From Acaryochloris sp. CCMEE 5410 (GTDB lineage: Bacteria; Cyanobacteriota; Cyanobacteriia; Thermosynechococcales; Thermosynechococcaceae): a DNA stretch of 64,000 bases. Within the stretch, counting starts at the first letter, position 1, and each line of letters begins with the position of its first letter. Made by a program: the position numbers and the translations under genes. Positions 46,928-54,652 of the stretch are shown piece by piece. Below the pieces are notes generated by a model. It was not told the origin of the DNA and made no database searches. It saw nothing but the letters and a program-made list of their open reading frames with translations. Where the stretch lies: assembly GCF_000238775.2 (NCBI RefSeq), contig NZ_AFEJ02000001.1, positions 3,286,001-3,350,000 of the forward strand, given 5' to 3'.

Positions 46928-47578
46928 ATGGCAGTATCAACCCCCGTCACTCCGCACTCTCTTTCAAATAACGTTACGTCCCTCTATGAAGCTCGCAGTC
47001 TATGCTTAAGACCGGGCCAAGTTGTCCCACAGCAGTCTGATCATCTCTGGCACATTGAGTCAGGATTGGTACGCACCCTTACGTGGAATGAGGAAGGTGA
47101 TTTAGTCACTCTTGGACTATGGGGGGCCGGCGATTCTGTGGGTCGCTTGTTGTCTGAAGTCGCTCCTTTCCAGATGGAGTGCTTAAGCGCGGTAGAGGTG
47201 AAACCTTTGCCTTTGGCAGGGCAAGATTTGGGGGTGGTGATGCGATCGCACCTCCGCTACATGGAAGAACTCTTCAGCATCATTAGCTATAAGCGGGCAC
47301 CTCAAAGGTTATTGCGCTTTTTGGATTGGCTGGGCGATCGGTTTGGCCGCCAGGTTGATCAGGGGCGAATCCTAGATTTGGGATTAACCCATCAGCTCTT
47401 GGCTGAGATTACAGGCATCACCCGAGTCACCGCCACTCGTCTGCTCAATGAATTCGAGCGGGAAGGTAAGCTGTTGCGCCTGCCCAAGCAACAAATGCTG
47501 CTGCAGTTCAACTCAGGGCATCCCGATCGAGTGACCAGCATGGCCCGACATCGCGCTAGAGGGAAACGCAACACCTAA
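46928..47578 (+). CDS. Crp/Fnr-family transcription regulator
   Basis: 216 residues from ATG 46928 (MAVSTPVTPH); the frame extends upstream without conserved sequence. An N-terminal cyclic-nucleotide-binding-like beta barrel (SGLVRTLTWNEEGDLVTLGL) is followed by a C-terminal winged helix (LAEITGITRVTATRLLNEFE). It resembles NtcA/Crp-type regulators but its ligand is unknown. It overlaps the convergent dynamin gene by 4 bases. Confidence 0.88.
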   Translation: MAVSTPVTPHSLSNNVTSLYEARSLCLRPGQVVPQQSDHLWHIESGLVRTLTWNEEGDLVTLGLWGAGDSVGRLLSEVAPFQMECLSAVEVKPLPLAGQDLGVVMRSHLRYMEELFSIISYKRAPQRLLRFLDWLGDRFGRQVDQGRILDLGLTHQLLAEITGITRVTATRLLNEFEREGKLLRLPKQQMLLQFNSGHPDRVTSMARHRARGKRNT

Positions 47579-49644
47579 TTGAGTAGGGCGGTTAGCTGGC
47601 TGACTTGTTCAGCCATGCCTTGATCTAGCCGTTGCAGACGATCGGTCTCTTGCTCTAGCTGAATGTCTTGAGTCTCTTTTTGGGTGACCAAATAGGTGAG
47701 TTCCGTTTGGCGAGCCAGAATATCATCGTTCAAGCGCTGAATAATCTCGGTTTCGTAGGTATTAAAGCAAGACTCGACGGCTTCATACACCGCCTGCTGC
47801 TGCTCTTGGGCAATTTGGGGCAGACATTTGGCAAATTCTTGGCGAGTGGTGGTCAGGAAGGTCTGACGAACGTATTCAGCTTGCCCTGCCACTAGACCTG
47901 CGCCCGCAACAATCACTAGAAACACATTCAAAGCCATGGCTGAAAACAAAAAGCCAACCATTTGAATCACCAGGGTGACGCAGAGGGAGGTAAACACCGC
48001 CTGCATCACCCGCCGCCAAAAGGGGCTTAAACGACCCACCACCCCATTCAGGGAGTTGGGAATGGCATCTAAGACTTCAAAGACGGTGTCGGTCCAGGTT
48101 TCAGCATCATTATAGGTATGGCCTGAGGCTCCATAGGACTGGCCCAACAGTTTGGCATTAATCACCTCTACCACTTGGGTATAGGTGGCCTGATATTGGT
48201 CGGCAACGGCTTGCACCTGGGCAAAAGCGGTTTCTAGTTGCTGAGTCGCCTGGATTTCCCACTCGGCCAATTTATCCGTGAGGTAGCGTTCAAAGGCTCT
48301 CTTAAAGGACTCATGGAACTTGGCCCGGTTCTGCTTGTTGAGGAAGTCTAAAAACTCTAGATCCGGCTGGGAGACGACAAAGTCCGTTTCAAAGGTTTTT
48401 TCCAGCTGCAGCATATAGGCCCGAAATGAATCGGCAATGGATTGGGCTTCGCGATCGCGGATTTGGCGAATTTCGGTTTGAAAGTCTGTAGAGACGGCTG
48501 CGAGCTGATCGAACTCACTCTGGACGGAAGCAACTTTGACCTTCAGATTACCGATATCCTCGTCTAATAAGGGAATCCGCCGTTCAACCGCTTCATGAAC
48601 ATGGGCCGCCACGACCCGAGCCTGGTGCACCGCATGATTTAACTCAGCATTGGTGCGCTCGCGGGTTAAAAATTGGGTGAGGGCATCGAGAAATGCGGGG
48701 ATACCCGTATCGTCTAGGGAGGCTTTGGGGTCGTGGAGTTGAGACCTTAGCGCGGGCAGCGCTGAAATTTCAAACACCCGCTGGGAATAGCGATCTTCGC
48801 CATTGACTGAACAGTAGGGGGAAAGGTGGGTTTGAAAAACTTGTCGCAGCTTGGCTTCTGCTTCGGCCAAGGCACTTTTATCCTCTGGATCGAGGAGGCT
48901 GGTTTTCACCTTATCCCAGGCATTGAGGAGGAAGAAAATGGTGAGTCCCCGATTCTGGAGAAAGTTTCGTAGATAGCGCCGCTCATCGAGGGTGCAGGGC
49001 TGGGTAGTATTGAGGACAAATAACACAGCATGACAGTCGTTGAGATAGTTGAGGACTAGCTCGTTACGGGCTTCTGTATCATTCAGGCCAGGGGTATCGA
49101 CGATTTCAATCCCCTTGGCTAAGAGAGGTAGAGGATACTCGATCACCGCATGACTGACATTGGGAAAGGCTTGCTCATCCTTATCCTGTAGGGCTTTGGA
49201 TTCAGACGGGTCAATGGTGTATTTCCATTTGAAGGTGGCGACATCAATCTGCTGGGGCGGGGTGTCATCGCGAAAGTGAATAGTGACTTGCTTCTGCGGA
49301 CCATATTTGAGAACGCTCAAAATAGCGGTACAAGGGTTGACATCGCTGGGCAGCAGTCGTTCTCCCAAAATGGCATTGATTAGGGTACTTTTGCCGCGTT
49401 TGAGATCGCCCAATACCACTAGCCGAAAGACACCTTTCCGCAGATAGTCACTAGCGGTTTTGACAAGGGTAATCTGGCGGTCAAACCCCAATGGTCCTGA
49501 AGCCTTGGCACCATCCAGTTCTGATTGAATCAGCCCCTGAGACATTTGTTCTAAATGATCGGCAACCTGCTCGCGAACACGGCGGACTTGGTCAAAATCA
49601 TCTAAATATCCCGCAGGTTGGGAGGCGTTGACAGGATTGCTCAT
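47575..49644 (-). CDS. Bacterial dynamin-like GTPase
   Basis: About 689 residues from MSNPVNASQ at 49644. The G1 motif is GDLKRGKSTLIN (near 77-88), with the switch Thr in NPCTAI, VDTPGLND (G3) and LNAWDKV (G4). A long helical trunk is followed by two hydrophobic segments near 550-590, forming the membrane paddle, and a coiled-coil tail. It likely remodels or protects membranes in a GTP-dependent way. Confidence 0.9.
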   Translation of the reverse strand: MSNPVNASQPAGYLDDFDQVRRVREQVADHLEQMSQGLIQSELDGAKASGPLGFDRQITLVKTASDYLRKGVFRLVVLGDLKRGKSTLINAILGERLLPSDVNPCTAILSVLKYGPQKQVTIHFRDDTPPQQIDVATFKWKYTIDPSESKALQDKDEQAFPNVSHAVIEYPLPLLAKGIEIVDTPGLNDTEARNELVLNYLNDCHAVLFVLNTTQPCTLDERRYLRNFLQNRGLTIFFLLNAWDKVKTSLLDPEDKSALAEAEAKLRQVFQTHLSPYCSVNGEDRYSQRVFEISALPALRSQLHDPKASLDDTGIPAFLDALTQFLTRERTNAELNHAVHQARVVAAHVHEAVERRIPLLDEDIGNLKVKVASVQSEFDQLAAVSTDFQTEIRQIRDREAQSIADSFRAYMLQLEKTFETDFVVSQPDLEFLDFLNKQNRAKFHESFKRAFERYLTDKLAEWEIQATQQLETAFAQVQAVADQYQATYTQVVEVINAKLLGQSYGASGHTYNDAETWTDTVFEVLDAIPNSLNGVVGRLSPFWRRVMQAVFTSLCVTLVIQMVGFLFSAMALNVFLVIVAGAGLVAGQAEYVRQTFLTTTRQEFAKCLPQIAQEQQQAVYEAVESCFNTYETEIIQRLNDDILARQTELTYLVTQKETQDIQLEQETDRLQRLDQGMAEQVSQLTALLN

Positions 49645-49844
49645 GGATTGGCGGTTGAAAGGACTGAAGTCGGAGATAGCGAGCGCTGACCGTACCATCA
49701 TAGCGATAGCCAATGGCTGATGGCGCTAACGACTCTCAGTATTCCCAGGTGGGGAGGGATGCTAGACCGCAGTGAGGGAGAACACTCATAGGATCGGATC
49801 GCGAGGCTAGACTAACGCCAGTTGTATCCATCCATTGAGGACCC

Positions 49845-51420: not shown

Positions 51421-53724
51421 TTACAATTCACGGGACTGCCTTGTGCTGCAATCTACAAGTCTTTGTGCAAGGAAAGTAGCCCAGCCAACGAGCCAATGCC
51501 CTCCGCCCCGGCCGACTGACAACACAACAGCCGGAAATTCTCCAGGAAGAGTCTTACTTATATCGAAGGTCAAGTCTGGGTATGCTCGCCAATTGCCATT
51601 ACTTCTCCAACCAACACGATCACCAAACTTTTCCCACTTATCATTGTAAATTGTAGGGCTTCCACATTCTTCCCAAATTTTTTTTTGCACACTGAAACCC
51701 CATTTACCTTTGCTGTATTGCACCCACAATTGATCAACCATTTGCAGGTCTTCACAGGGAAAAGTTTTAAGGTCATTTTCACTCAACAATTGTCCATCTT
51801 CTTTCCCCACCGTGGTAATCATCAAGCGATAGGTTTCTTGATCGGCTTCATACCACTGTTGATTTTTTAGAAGTTGTTCTAAGGTTGCATAACGAGAATT
51901 TTCTACTTGGGGGGTGAGTTGTTGGAAAGCAGCTAACTCATCTGCGGTTAAATCCAGCCGCTTCGTCGTGTCTTGCTGAATGGTATAGGCCAAATCAATA
52001 GCTTCTTGATGCAAGGCTTCTCGAATGAGTGGTGTGGGATTGACCTGCGAGGCATAGAGCAAAATGGTCTGTTTCCACCAGTCATTTTTGAGGTGTTCAT
52101 ATAGCAATGCTTCTTGCTTGCCCTCAGCAATTTGCTTTGCTGCTAAGTACTCTTGCAAACTGAGATGAGCAAATTCGAATTCACCTGGCTCCCGCTCCAC
52201 TAGAAGTTCACTAATCTGTACTACTTGCGCCAAAAAATCCTTAGATTGAACTGTTTCTTGTTGTTGTGCCAAATAAGTATCGATACAATCCACTAAGACA
52301 GAGCGATCCAAACGCTCTTCATGGGCTTCCATCATCGATAAAGCCAACCGTTGCAATATAAGCTGGGCTCCGCAATTGATTAAGCAAGTCTCCAGTTTCC
52401 GCGCTCCCGGTCGGTCTCGAAGCTGCAATGTACAAATTTCTCGATAGAGTTCAACCCGGCGTTTGGGTAACTCCACACCTGGGAATCGCCGATGAAACGT
52501 CACAATCATATTCAGCAAGAGTGGATTTTTGGCTAAATCTTTCAGCTCTTGCCGCGCTTCAATTTGGGTTAGCAGCTCCTCGGCAGCAGCTTGGGCATCA
52601 TGCTCAACGTCGGGAGTTGTATCCCCGCCCCTGGCATATCGCTCTTGGCACCAATACCAATGCTCCACAAAATCGCGGCGTTGAGCTTCATTAAAATCTT
52701 GTACCCATAGACGGGTCGAGAGTTCAAGGCGATCGGCTGGGTCCTGCTCGTTATAGGCTTTAGGACGGGAAGTGACGATAAAGACTGATTTACTATAATG
52801 GCGCATCTGGTCATTAATCCATCGAGCCACTGCCGGACGTTGCCCGAAGGTAACCTCATCAAAGCCATCCAGCATTACCACTGCTTCACCTCGATTGAGC
52901 TTCTTGTGAACCCAATCCTTCGGTAAATCAGCTAACTTGTCAGAATCTGGTAAATCTGGAATATGGTGATTTTTGATCAACTCTGGTAAACTCGGCGGTT
53001 GCCCCTGAGCGAGTCGGTCCCGATGTTTCCGCAACACTAGCAAAAAAGGGACTCGTCGCGATACGCCATACTTATCTCCTTGTTGATTCATTCCATAGGT
53101 ATGGGCAATATGTTTGAGCAACGTCGTTTTACCATACCCGCCCCAGGCCAGCACCACAATTTGTCGAAAGGTCACTTCTCGCTCGGTTTTTCCCAGTAAG
53201 TCCCAAATTTTGTGCCCACTAACTACATCACGAGCAGACTTTTCAAGGTGCTGATCAGGAAACTGTCGCCAACCTGCTGGTAAAGAGCTAGCATCCAACT
53301 CTAAAGGGACATAAATCTCCTCCAACAGGGGCATAAAAATACCATCATGTTGCACCACCCCTTCAGATTTCTGACGACGGCAAGCCCAAGCTTGACATCG
53401 ATAATACTGTTCTTCTACGCCACTAACTTTAGCAATGCCATGATCAATCGCTTTATTGGCGGCTTCTCCTGCTTTTGTTAGGCGATCTTGATTGCCCTTA
53501 TGAACTGGGTTAAGCAGACTAGCTCCATAGGAAATTCCCAAACCAATCACTCCAGACGCCAAGGCTTTGGGAATATCACTATCTTTGAACAGGGACCAAA
53601 ACGCACCTGCTCCACCTACCGTCACCCCACCTGTCCGCACAGCTTTAACCACAACATCCGCAATCTGGTCACTGAGAGAAACCTTAGCTTTAGATTTTGA
53701 AGTAGGTTTGTCAGTCTTGGTCAT
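51421..53724 (-). CDS. NACHT NTPase with C-terminal GUN4 domain (bacterial NLR-like)
   Basis: 767 residues. A basic N-terminus with two glycine-rich hydrophobic stretches (about 25-75) precedes a NACHT domain: Walker A WGGYGKTTLL near 192-201, Walker B VVMLDGFDEV near 281-290, sensor IVTSRP. After a winged-helix/helical part (EFEFAHLSLQEYLAAK), residues about 605-735 match GUN4: FPCEDLQMVDQLWVQYS, WGFSVQKKIWEECG and FGDRVGWRSNG. GUN4 binds tetrapyrroles in chlorophyll biosynthesis. NACHT proteins of this architecture are candidate antiphage or signalling NTPases. Confidence 0.88.
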   Translation of the reverse strand: MTKTDKPTSKSKAKVSLSDQIADVVVKAVRTGGVTVGGAGAFWSLFKDSDIPKALASGVIGLGISYGASLLNPVHKGNQDRLTKAGEAANKAIDHGIAKVSGVEEQYYRCQAWACRRQKSEGVVQHDGIFMPLLEEIYVPLELDASSLPAGWRQFPDQHLEKSARDVVSGHKIWDLLGKTEREVTFRQIVVLAWGGYGKTTLLKHIAHTYGMNQQGDKYGVSRRVPFLLVLRKHRDRLAQGQPPSLPELIKNHHIPDLPDSDKLADLPKDWVHKKLNRGEAVVMLDGFDEVTFGQRPAVARWINDQMRHYSKSVFIVTSRPKAYNEQDPADRLELSTRLWVQDFNEAQRRDFVEHWYWCQERYARGGDTTPDVEHDAQAAAEELLTQIEARQELKDLAKNPLLLNMIVTFHRRFPGVELPKRRVELYREICTLQLRDRPGARKLETCLINCGAQLILQRLALSMMEAHEERLDRSVLVDCIDTYLAQQQETVQSKDFLAQVVQISELLVEREPGEFEFAHLSLQEYLAAKQIAEGKQEALLYEHLKNDWWKQTILLYASQVNPTPLIREALHQEAIDLAYTIQQDTTKRLDLTADELAAFQQLTPQVENSRYATLEQLLKNQQWYEADQETYRLMITTVGKEDGQLLSENDLKTFPCEDLQMVDQLWVQYSKGKWGFSVQKKIWEECGSPTIYNDKWEKFGDRVGWRSNGNWRAYPDLTFDISKTLPGEFPAVVLSVGRGGGHWLVGWATFLAQRLVDCSTRQSREL

Positions 53725-53862
53725 GGCTCTAGAAATATAGCGCTGTCTTTAGTACAGGACAAAACTTTATATCAGCTAGCTAGGGATATTTTTTTAAGGA
53801 GAGTACGACCTCTCACAACTAGATCCGATATTTTTCTAGTCAACAGCCTCAATTATGCCGCA

Positions 53863-54273
53863 TTAGCCCCCTAAATCCCCCATTCTGGGGGACTTTGATT
53901 GTCCATCAATGCTTTGCTCGCTCGCATATCGAATTTGCTGAAGCACATGATCTAGGTGGTGCATAACGTCTGAGTTATGGAATCGGATCACTCGGAAACC
54001 AAGCTGGTTGAGCTGCTCAGTACGGGCTTTATCGTATTCCACCTGCTGATTGTGGATATCGCCGTCTAGTTCAATCACTAATCGGCATTGGGGACAGTAA
54101 AAATCGACAATAAACGAACCAATGGCGTGTTGACAGCGGAATTTAAGGCCGCTGAGTTGACGTTTTTGCAGTGCTTTCCACAGCCTTTGTTCTGCAGTCG
54201 TCAGATTGAGTCTCAGTCGTCGTGCGGCGGCAACGACGGCTGGGGTCGTGCCGCGAATGCGGTGGTGTTGCAT
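53863..54273 (-). CDS. DUF559 (VSR-like fold) nuclease
   Basis: 136 residues. The nuclease core is intact: LKFRCQHAIGSFIVDFYCP, then RLVIELDGDIH with the catalytic acidic cluster, and FRVIRFHNSDV. The last dozen residues (SPRMGDLGG) are encoded by a palindromic repeat that occurs twice more just upstream. The gene lies between the NACHT gene and two unknown genes. Confidence 0.85.
   Translation of the reverse strand: MQHHRIRGTTPAVVAAARRLRLNLTTAEQRLWKALQKRQLSGLKFRCQHAIGSFIVDFYCPQCRLVIELDGDIHNQQVEYDKARTEQLNQLGFRVIRFHNSDVMHHLDHVLQQIRYASEQSIDGQSKSPRMGDLGG
53866..53899 (-). repeat. Palindromic repeat, copy 1
   Basis: The core CCCCCATTCTGGGGG is at 53877-53891, flanked by the same CTAAAT and ACTTTGA as in copies 2 and 3 (opposite orientation). 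It forms the 3' coding end of the DUF559 gene. Confidence 0.85.
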
Positions 54274-54305
54274 TTACTTCTCTCGCATTTTGTTACCCCC
54301 AACCC

Positions 54306-54460
54306 TGTCTCCCATCTAAAATCATCATAAATCTCAAAGTCCCCCAGAATGGGGGATTTAGGGTGCCAATGCAGAGTTTAACTGGGCTTCCAAAACAACT
54401 TCTCAACCCAGCTCATGATGACGACAGAGGGTGATGGCTTTCGTTTTTGTCCTGGCACTG
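54306..54460 (+). repeat. Direct repeat copy A with palindromic core
   Basis: About 155 bases starting TGTCTCCCATCT and ending GTCCTGGCACTG, with the palindromic core at 54341-54355. It matches copy B at 54489-54642, with scattered differences. No gene is inside. Confidence 0.8.
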
Positions 54461-54488
54461 CCTTATTGTGTTCTAGTCATCTCCTGAA

Positions 54489-54642
54489 GGTCTCCCATCT
54501 AGGATAATCATACATCTCAAAGTCCCCCAGAATGGGGGATTTAGGGGGCGTATGCAGGGTTTGACGAGGCTTATAAAACCATTCCTCAACATGGCTAAGG
54601 ATAACGGCAGAGAGTGATGGATTCAGTGATTGTCCTGCACTG
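54489..54642 (+). repeat. Direct repeat copy B with palindromic core
   Basis: About 154 bases starting GGTCTCCCATCT and ending TGTCCTGCACTG, with the core CCCCCAGAATGGGGG. It lies 28 bases after copy A. The two copies share both the palindrome and about 100 bases of tail. Confidence 0.8.
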
Positions 54643-54652
54643 AAGACACTTC

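What the first reader, a model, noticed from the sequence alone, without database searches (positions are those of the whole stretch)
51421..53724. NACHT NTPase capped by a GUN4 domain: an NLR-like protein with a tetrapyrrole-binding sensor
The sequence shows NACHT Walker motifs and, at the C-terminus, where bacterial NLR-like proteins keep their sensor, the conserved GUN4 blocks. GUN4 is known from chlorophyll biosynthesis and retrograde signalling, where it binds porphyrins; bacterial NACHT proteins are known to act in phage defence. The fusion suggests that a porphyrin level, or a GUN4-binding protein targeted by phage, triggers the NTPase. A DUF559 nuclease gene lies just upstream.
Basis: partly seen in the sequence, partly recalled or inferred. 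Interest (0 to 1): 0.72.

Follow-up and report, generated by a model that had tools for sequence, protein, structure and literature searches.

The report
NLR-like protein with hypervariable GUN4 tail
A cyanobacterial protein built like an animal immune sensor ends in a GUN4 domain whose pigment-binding loop is replaced by a tail that differs in almost every gene, and across cyanobacteria these tails sit beside one particular transposase-like gene that probably rewrites them.

Summary
In detail: window 51421-53724, minus strand, encodes 767 aa with a NACHT NTPase and a C-terminal GUN4 domain. The predicted fold matches NLRC4, NOD2 and NLRP3. The porphyrin-sensor reading fails: the tetrapyrrole loop LxNxLR and the binding Phe are gone. 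In their place is a hypervariable segment.

In 182 cyanobacterial GUN4 fusion genes, a 7-122 nt tract (median 54 nt, 74% G+T) follows the conserved GHLP motif. Next comes a 33-nt cap conserved as DNA, read in all three frames, containing a TCTCG/CGAGA palindrome. Genes at least 86% identical upstream almost always have unrelated tracts. Partners are kinases, caspases, TIR, NACHT, CHAT and NB-ARC.

A REP-associated tyrosine transposase (RAYT/TnpA_REP) often lies convergent just downstream. Of its 30 best matches in 390 genomes, 29 face a GUN4 gene. Cap-bearing genomes without reverse transcriptase argue against a diversity-generating retroelement.

Best reading: GUN4 is a scaffold for a RAYT-diversified recognition tail on immune- or death-type effectors. 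In this window the transposase is lost and the cap decayed, so this copy is probably frozen. Tail hypervariability and RAYT linkage are shown; that the RAYT causes the change, and any anti-phage role, are inferred.

The parts
51421..53724 (-). NACHT-GUN4 gene, 767 aa (P0001)
53515..53631 (-). putative effector: two short hydrophobic segments (GGVTVGGAGAFWSLF, ALASGVIGLGISYGA), residues about 32-70
   Evidence: both segments recur in nearly all of 13 homologs; model confidence is low here; a membrane hairpin is inferred
52657..53142 (-). NACHT NTPase domain, residues 195-356 (Walker A about 195-201, Walker B about 282-291)
   Evidence: Pfam PF05729 1.7e-12; Foldseek NLRC4 E 1.5e-10
52132..52329 (-). 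winged-helix-like part of the NACHT module, residues 466-531
   Evidence: sub-threshold HTH_TANC1 match 19.8 bits, cut-off 27; fold match extends through it
51526..51903 (-). GUN4 core, residues 608-733, ending in GEFP (GHLP position)
   Evidence: Pfam PF05419 1.3e-38
51480..51531 (-). hypervariable tract, 52 nt, 75% G+T, replacing the tetrapyrrole loop LxNxLR
   Evidence: 0.44 identity to the G002 ortholog while GUN4 is 0.74 and the cap region 0.72; disordered in the model
51447..51479 (-). decayed 3' cap element, read in the frame of LAQRLVDC
   Evidence: 20/33 to the consensus (null: 0.28% of draws reach 20); 72% and 70% identity of cap plus following bases (50 nt) with G002 and G001 homologs
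51421..51446 (-). 3' end after the cap, to the stop codon

Best explanation
The gene encodes an NLR-like receptor: a putative membrane-active N-terminus, a NACHT STAND switch, and a GUN4 fold that no longer serves as a tetrapyrrole sensor but as a scaffold displaying a hypervariable C-terminal tail. In the wider family the tail's coding DNA is a G/T-rich tract of any length, closed by a short DNA cap that ends the protein acceptably and stops translation in all three frames, so insertions of any length are tolerated. I propose that the linked RAYT (a Y1/HUH single-strand nuclease related to TnpA_REP) nicks at the cap palindrome, that the tract end is trimmed and extended without a template, mostly with G and T, and that the cap is rejoined. 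Each event would give a new recognition surface on the same effector. In this window the RAYT is gone and the cap is decayed, so this copy is probably a frozen specificity. Shown: architecture, loss of tetrapyrrole residues, tract hypervariability, frame-neutral cap, RAYT linkage. Inferred: RAYT as the cause, the G/T-adding enzyme (unknown), tail as ligand-binding surface, role in phage defence or programmed death.
For: NACHT+GUN4 and NLR fold. Tetrapyrrole residues lost (PMC10156173, PMC8967248). Tract: 182 genes, G+T median 0.74 against 0.51 upstream (paired p about 1e-29), composition nearly flat over codon positions (Cramer V 0.036 against 0.113 upstream), lengths 7-122 nt in all three phases. 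101 gene pairs at least 86% identical upstream: only 4 keep the tract (at least 0.89 identical in the printed pairs; 0.7 or less in the others), although cap and flanks are conserved. Cap conserved at every codon position whatever its frame; all frames stop within 45 nt in 77% against 19% of shuffles; palindrome with at least 4 of 5 pairs in 160/182. The cap occurs almost only at GUN4 gene ends (157 of 174; the rest mostly cut or broken), in 105 of 390 cyanobacterial genomes, 0 with the reversed pattern. Where present, RAYT is always convergent, mostly 45-200 nt downstream; reciprocal search 29/30; genome-level association p 2e-13. RAYT keeps HUH and Tyr; best fold match is TnpA_REP on its hairpin, 4er8. 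L160 and L331 share the first 12 nt of the tract and then differ, as trimming and re-extension at the cap-side end predicts. Related RAYTs in picocyanobacteria also face genes with variable 3' ends, prochlorosin-type precursors among them.
Against: No RAYT of this subfamily in the window's own genome and a weak cap, so this copy shows the end state only. No strain-level pair showing change in real time; the closest pair of all (0.98 upstream) kept its tract. Linkage does not prove that the RAYT does the cutting: RAYTs can be passengers, and many cap-bearing genomes have no detected RAYT. Nothing explains the G/T bias; no terminal-transferase-like gene recurs beside the loci. About 8% of tracts are not G/T-rich. 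Some tails stay conserved (Okeania L194/L256). No defence-island context. The N-terminal effector is undefined.
Confidence: 0.58

Rival explanations
1. One reading: GUN4 senses porphyrin or bilin level and switches the NACHT NTPase; the variable tail is incidental.
For: GUN4 fold conserved; PMC7159879 proposes tetrapyrrole sensing for GUN4 fusions in general; Trp192 is mostly Tyr, so some ring stacking could remain; loss of Asn alone in a Chlamydomonas GUN4 did not abolish porphyrin binding (PMC10156173).
Against: Phe196, Asn211 and Arg214 are lost together and the loop is hypervariable in sequence and length, incompatible with one conserved small ligand there. GUN4 paralogs are already proposed to have lost bilin binding (PMC10156173).
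Confidence: 0.08
2. Tails are diversified by a diversity-generating retroelement, as in cyanobacterial C-type-lectin kinases and caspases; the RAYT only moves cassettes.
For: Same effector types (kinases, orthocaspases, TIR, CHAT) and same 3' position as known cyanobacterial DGR targets (PMC7517822); IS200/IS605 transposases are reported near some DGR loci.
Against: No template repeat for the window tail in its genome. Cap-bearing genomes G040, G045 and G047 have no RVT_1 match over threshold. Tract lengths vary in all phases and almost all bases change, whereas DGRs keep length and change template adenines. No extra cap copy that could be a template repeat.
Confidence: 0.05
3. The RAYT and cap are a selfish element that uses the 3' ends of GUN4 genes as a landing site; variability is scar from repeated insertion and excision, without a selected receptor role.
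For: RAYTs are transposase relatives and often decayed here; caps and upstream pieces are sometimes duplicated in tracts; unrelated repeats crowd some loci.
Against: The reading frame through tract and cap stays open across about 180 genes; the cap is conserved in three frames with early stops; association is confined to a domain at the sensor end of immune-type proteins; caps without GUN4 are rare and mostly broken or cut.
Confidence: 0.2
4. Ordinary fast evolution of a glycine- and tryptophan-rich loop under amino-acid selection.
For: Tails are rich in Gly, Val, Trp, Leu, Phe; immune receptors evolve fast.
Against: Composition is nearly the same at all codon positions, tracts differ in length by non-multiples of three, and replacement is complete between otherwise 90%-identical genes with conserved DNA on both sides.
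Confidence: 0.05

Closest known systems
Bacterial NLR-related NACHT proteins (bNACHT; PMC12169576)
   Same: Tripartite plan with NACHT in the middle and a sensor at the C-terminus; NLR fold match.
   Different: GUN4 with a hypervariable tail at the sensor end instead of SNaCT, NCH1 or LRR; no phage data; bNACHT clade not tested.
GUN4 fusions in cyanobacterial conflict systems (Kaur et al. 2020, PMC7159879; orthocaspase-GUN4, PMC2853523)
   Same: GUN4 fused to kinases, caspases, trypsin, TIR; conflict-system setting.
   Different: PMC7159879 treats GUN4 as a tetrapyrrole sensor; the GUN4 passages read report no hypervariable tail, cap or RAYT.
Diversity-generating retroelements of cyanobacteria (PMC7517822)
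   Same: 3'-end hypervariation of kinase, caspase, TIR and CHAT proteins.
   Different: RT, template repeat and C-type lectin fold there; here no RT is needed, tract length varies and the scaffold is GUN4.
TnpA_REP/RAYT transposases, and their reported association with lanthipeptide genes in marine picocyanobacteria (Laurenceau et al., bioRxiv, title seen as a reference in PMC10783134; text not readable here)
   Same: HUH/Tyr nuclease, palindrome recognition, residence beside genes with hypervariable 3' ends.
   Different: Here the target is a receptor tail on immune-type proteins, with a three-frame DNA cap and G/T-rich tract.
Canonical GUN4 (Mg-chelatase cofactor)
   Same: Pfam GUN4 core.
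   Different: No GUN4_N domain, no LxNxLR, Phe196 lost.

Membership tests
NACHT STAND NTPase / NLR-related protein | NACHT domain over the family cut-off with Walker A and B | tested here: met
   Pfam 47.9 bits, cut-off 26.7
NACHT STAND NTPase / NLR-related protein | NLR-type fold | tested here: met
   Foldseek top hits NLRC4, NOD2, NLRP3, NAIP
NACHT STAND NTPase / NLR-related protein | membership in a described bNACHT clade (6, 14 ...) | not tested
   clade models not at hand
NACHT STAND NTPase / NLR-related protein | anti-phage activity | not testable with these tools
   needs an experiment
Tetrapyrrole-binding GUN4 | GUN4 core domain | tested here: met
   132.8 bits, cut-off 29.2
Tetrapyrrole-binding GUN4 | LxNxLR motif (Asn211, Arg214) | tested here: not met
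   replaced by the tract right after GHLP/GEFP
Tetrapyrrole-binding GUN4 | Phe196 (Arabidopsis Phe191) | tested here: not met
   Leu in P0001; Phe in 4% of 140 hypervariable GUN4s (only 3 canonical sequences served as reference)
Tetrapyrrole-binding GUN4 | GUN4_N helical domain | tested here: not met
   absent in P0001, present in the genome's canonical GUN4 (L001)
Diversity-generating retroelement target | template repeat and DGR RT in the genome | tested here: not met
   no template repeat; cap-bearing genomes without RT
Diversity-generating retroelement target | fixed-length, adenine-specific variation | tested here: not met
   lengths 7-122 nt, tract unalignable
RAYT / TnpA_REP (linked gene, not in this window) | Y1_Tnp domain with HUH and catalytic Tyr | tested here: met
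   PF01797 2.3e-17; SNHVH and RYIHxNP conserved
RAYT / TnpA_REP (linked gene, not in this window) | NCBIfam REP_Tyr_transpos cut-off | tested here: inconclusive
   70.7 bits, cut-off 80
RAYT / TnpA_REP (linked gene, not in this window) | fold of TnpA_REP | tested here: met
   4er8 is the top hit, E 2.1e-7; model pLDDT 67
RAYT / TnpA_REP (linked gene, not in this window) | adjacent palindromic recognition element | tested here: met
   cap palindrome; whether the RAYT binds it is not shown
PD-T4-6 anti-phage kinase (PADLOC) | kinase domain | tested here: not met
   only the GUN4 part aligns, residues 541-760

The most novel reading that the evidence does not exclude
Cyanobacteria carry a template-free receptor-diversification system, analogous to junctional diversity in vertebrate antigen receptors. 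A domesticated HUH transposase cuts a palindromic cap, non-templated G/T-biased synthesis remakes the tail, and a three-frame cap keeps every product translatable. It serves NLR-like, kinase, caspase and TIR receptors that share a repurposed GUN4 scaffold.
Probability: 0.4. Interest if true: 0.94.

Novelty: new variant of a known kind. Interest (0 to 1): 0.82.

Why it matters
Targeted hypervariation in bacteria is best known from retroelements that use a template repeat and a reverse transcriptase. A second route that remakes receptor tails without RT or template would give bacterial immune-type receptors something like junctional diversity. It would also offer a function for domesticated RAYT transposases, and connect them with prochlorosin-type precursors, whose core diversity is a standing puzzle. 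It redirects the reading of cyanobacterial GUN4 fusions from pigment sensing to recognition, and makes a simple test possible: sequence one locus in a growing culture with and without the RAYT.

Tried and rejected
DGR explanation: template-repeat search in the own genome and RT survey gave no support. Defence-island neighbourhood: not found (no formal background set). PD-T4-6 as evidence of defence: rejected, because the PADLOC model is itself a kinase-GUN4 cluster. DUF559 as partner: relocated in the nearest relative. RAYT remnant in the window: none found. Cap copies as hidden template repeats: extra copies were GUN4 ends, contig edges or a broken GUN4 gene. Microhomology copying from flanks: real but rare, 4 of 147 tracts against 0.2 expected. 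Repeats downstream of Dolichospermum-type loci turned out to be general dispersed repeats, not the cap. Plasmid collection: only 3 records with the RAYT, no strain pairs.

Full report
WHAT IS THERE. The window lies in an 8.09 Mb genome that is cyanobacterial by its relatives. The open frame at 51421-53724 is on the minus strand and encodes 767 aa. Pfam finds NACHT (1.7e-12) and GUN4 (1.3e-38). The AlphaFold model (mean pLDDT 75.5) matches NLRC4, NOD2, NLRP3 and NAIP in the PDB (best E 1.5e-10), so 'NLR-like' is justified by fold. The N-terminal ~100 residues model poorly, but two short hydrophobic, Gly-rich segments recur in nearly all homologs; a membrane-active hairpin is my inference. The same architecture occurs in many cyanobacterial families, with several broken copies, as expected of a turned-over accessory gene.

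NOT A PIGMENT SENSOR. In canonical GUN4 the motif GHLP is followed directly by LxNxLR. Its Asn211 (Synechocystis numbering) is needed for bilin binding and Arg214 for strong porphyrin binding; Phe196 also contributes (PMC10156173, PMC8967248). P0001 ends its GUN4 core with GEFP and then has an unrelated, low-confidence tail. Phe196 is Leu here and Phe in only 4% of 140 hypervariable GUN4s, and the GUN4_N domain is absent. The canonical reference in that comparison was only three sequences, but the published motif is the same.

THE TAIL. Lining up GUN4 fusions showed that everything up to GHLP is conserved, then a segment follows that differs in sequence and length between genes, then a conserved end. 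At the DNA level the segment is G/T-rich: in 182 tracts about A .16, C .11, G .41, T .32, median G+T 0.74 against 0.51 upstream, and nearly the same at all three codon positions (Cramer V 0.036 against 0.113 upstream). The conserved end is a ~33-nt element, consensus TCTCTTCTCTCGCRTCGAGACTTGTRAACTGTA, conserved as DNA and read in all three frames as SLLSRRDL*, SSLASRLVNCNI* or LFSRVETCKL* (46, 51 and 85 genes). Its information content stays at 1.4-1.7 bits at every codon position in each frame, against .28 at third positions upstream. All three frames reach a stop within 45 nt in 77% of caps against 19% of shuffles. It holds a palindrome TCTCG-CRT-CGAGA (at least 4 of 5 pairs in 160/182; best stem of 5 in 62% against 4% shuffled). 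Of 174 copies found, 157 end a GUN4 frame and the rest are mostly contig-cut or broken. With up to two mismatches the cap is in 105 of 390 cyanobacterial genomes and the reversed pattern in none. Kinase-GUN4 orthologs without the cap (L002, L027, L029, L030, L031) have a conserved, non-variable tail.

TURNOVER. Among 101 gene pairs at least 86% identical over the 300 nt before the tract, only a handful keep the tract (three at 0.89 or more, one near 0.7); all others are near background identity, although cap and often the DNA beyond are conserved (for example L160 against L212: upstream .91, tract .05, cap .93, beyond .97). L160 and L331 share the first 12 nt of the tract and then differ, suggesting trimming and re-extension at the cap-side end. 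The tail is therefore remade occasionally, not every generation: two Okeania genes keep .89, and the closest pair of all (.98 upstream) kept its tract.

THE LINKED GENE. Clustering the neighbours of 88 loci gave one clear recurrent partner, a Y1 transposase of the RAYT type. In a scan of all loci, wherever it is found near a cap it is convergent and almost always downstream, mostly 45-200 nt beyond the cap, intact or in remnants. Searching 390 genomes with the transposase alone, 29 of its 30 best matches (at least ~70% identical) face a GUN4 gene at that position, and the 30th is cut by a contig end. Cap and RAYT co-occur across genomes (47/75 against 58/315, p 2e-13, counts read). The enzyme keeps the HUH motif and the catalytic Tyr, and its model matches TnpA_REP bound to a REP hairpin best (4er8). 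NACHT-GUN4 loci with a nearby RAYT include L015, L152, L202, L239, L217 and L263.

PARTNERS. In 85 hypervariable-tail proteins (most NACHT members had been left out) the N-terminal parts are protein kinases (37), caspases (17), TIR (14 or more), NACHT (7), CHAT, NB-ARC, KAP and EAD1. Kaur et al. describe this kind of effector repertoire in conflict systems (PMC7159879). Within the window's genus the GUN4 module of this NACHT protein is as close to a caspase-GUN4 (0.73) as to its own NACHT ortholog (0.74), so the module seems to be exchanged between effectors.

MECHANISM. Proposed: the RAYT nicks at the cap hairpin, the tract end is trimmed and extended without a template, and the cap is rejoined; the three-frame cap makes any length acceptable. 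HUH cut-and-rejoin chemistry is established for the family (own knowledge); its use here is inferred. A DGR is disfavoured: no template repeat, no RT in several cap-bearing genomes, variable length. What adds mainly G and T is unknown and is the weakest point. In the present window the RAYT is absent from locus and genome and the cap is decayed (20/33), though still recognisable beside its relatives; this copy is probably a fixed specificity.

KNOWN AND NEW. GUN4 fusions are known (PMC7159879, PMC2853523) and so is hypervariation of similar cyanobacterial proteins by DGRs (PMC7517822). A preprint by Laurenceau et al. reports association of TnpA_REP with lanthipeptide genes in picocyanobacteria; I saw only its title as a reference in PMC10783134. 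In line with it, distant relatives of this RAYT face prochlorosin-like and other genes with variable 3' ends. Full-text searches for GUN4 with hypervariable, with diversity-generating, and with phage and defence found no report of hypervariable GUN4 tails, but subscription papers and preprints were not searchable. I therefore rate it a new variant of a known kind, targeted hypervariation, with a real chance that the mechanism is categorically new.

Noticed in passing
L365-L372 (picocyanobacterial genomes): RAYTs 45-51% identical to the GUN4-linked one face prochlorosin-like precursors, an outer-membrane-like family ending NRDVRVHD plus variable tail, and a third family with variable ends. In L365 two copies have identical 200 nt upstream and unrelated cores.
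   Followed up: partly
window 53748-54643: The DUF559 nuclease gene is flanked by repeated pieces and lies on the other side of the NACHT gene in the nearest relative (L045:3988-4502), so it looks like a relocated cassette.
   Followed up: no
G000:C1:1591827-1592210 (L005): The own genome has six GUN4 proteins: canonical GUN4, two kinase-GUN4, a caspase-GUN4, this NACHT-GUN4 and an unusual DnaJ-GUN4 fusion.
   Followed up: no
PADLOC model PDLC04062: The PD-T4-6 model PDLC04062 is in effect a cyanobacterial kinase-GUN4 cluster and can label any GUN4 fusion as anti-phage.
   Followed up: yes
G002:C24, G005:C83, G043:C17, G051:C66, G031:C170: Several NACHT-GUN4 copies are broken by stops or frameshifts, suggesting rapid gain and loss.
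   Followed up: no
L358, L359, L360 (genus of G288): Dispersed and tandem intergenic repeats of about 80-160 nt crowd the DNA beyond the cap.
   Followed up: partly
L065 (G050:C1:2034000-2052000): A tandem cluster of several GUN4 genes has one intact RAYT at its end, and tails differ between members.
   Followed up: partly
window 47575-49713: A bacterial dynamin-like GTPase with weak similarity to LeoA/LeoBC lies downstream of the NACHT gene.
   Followed up: no
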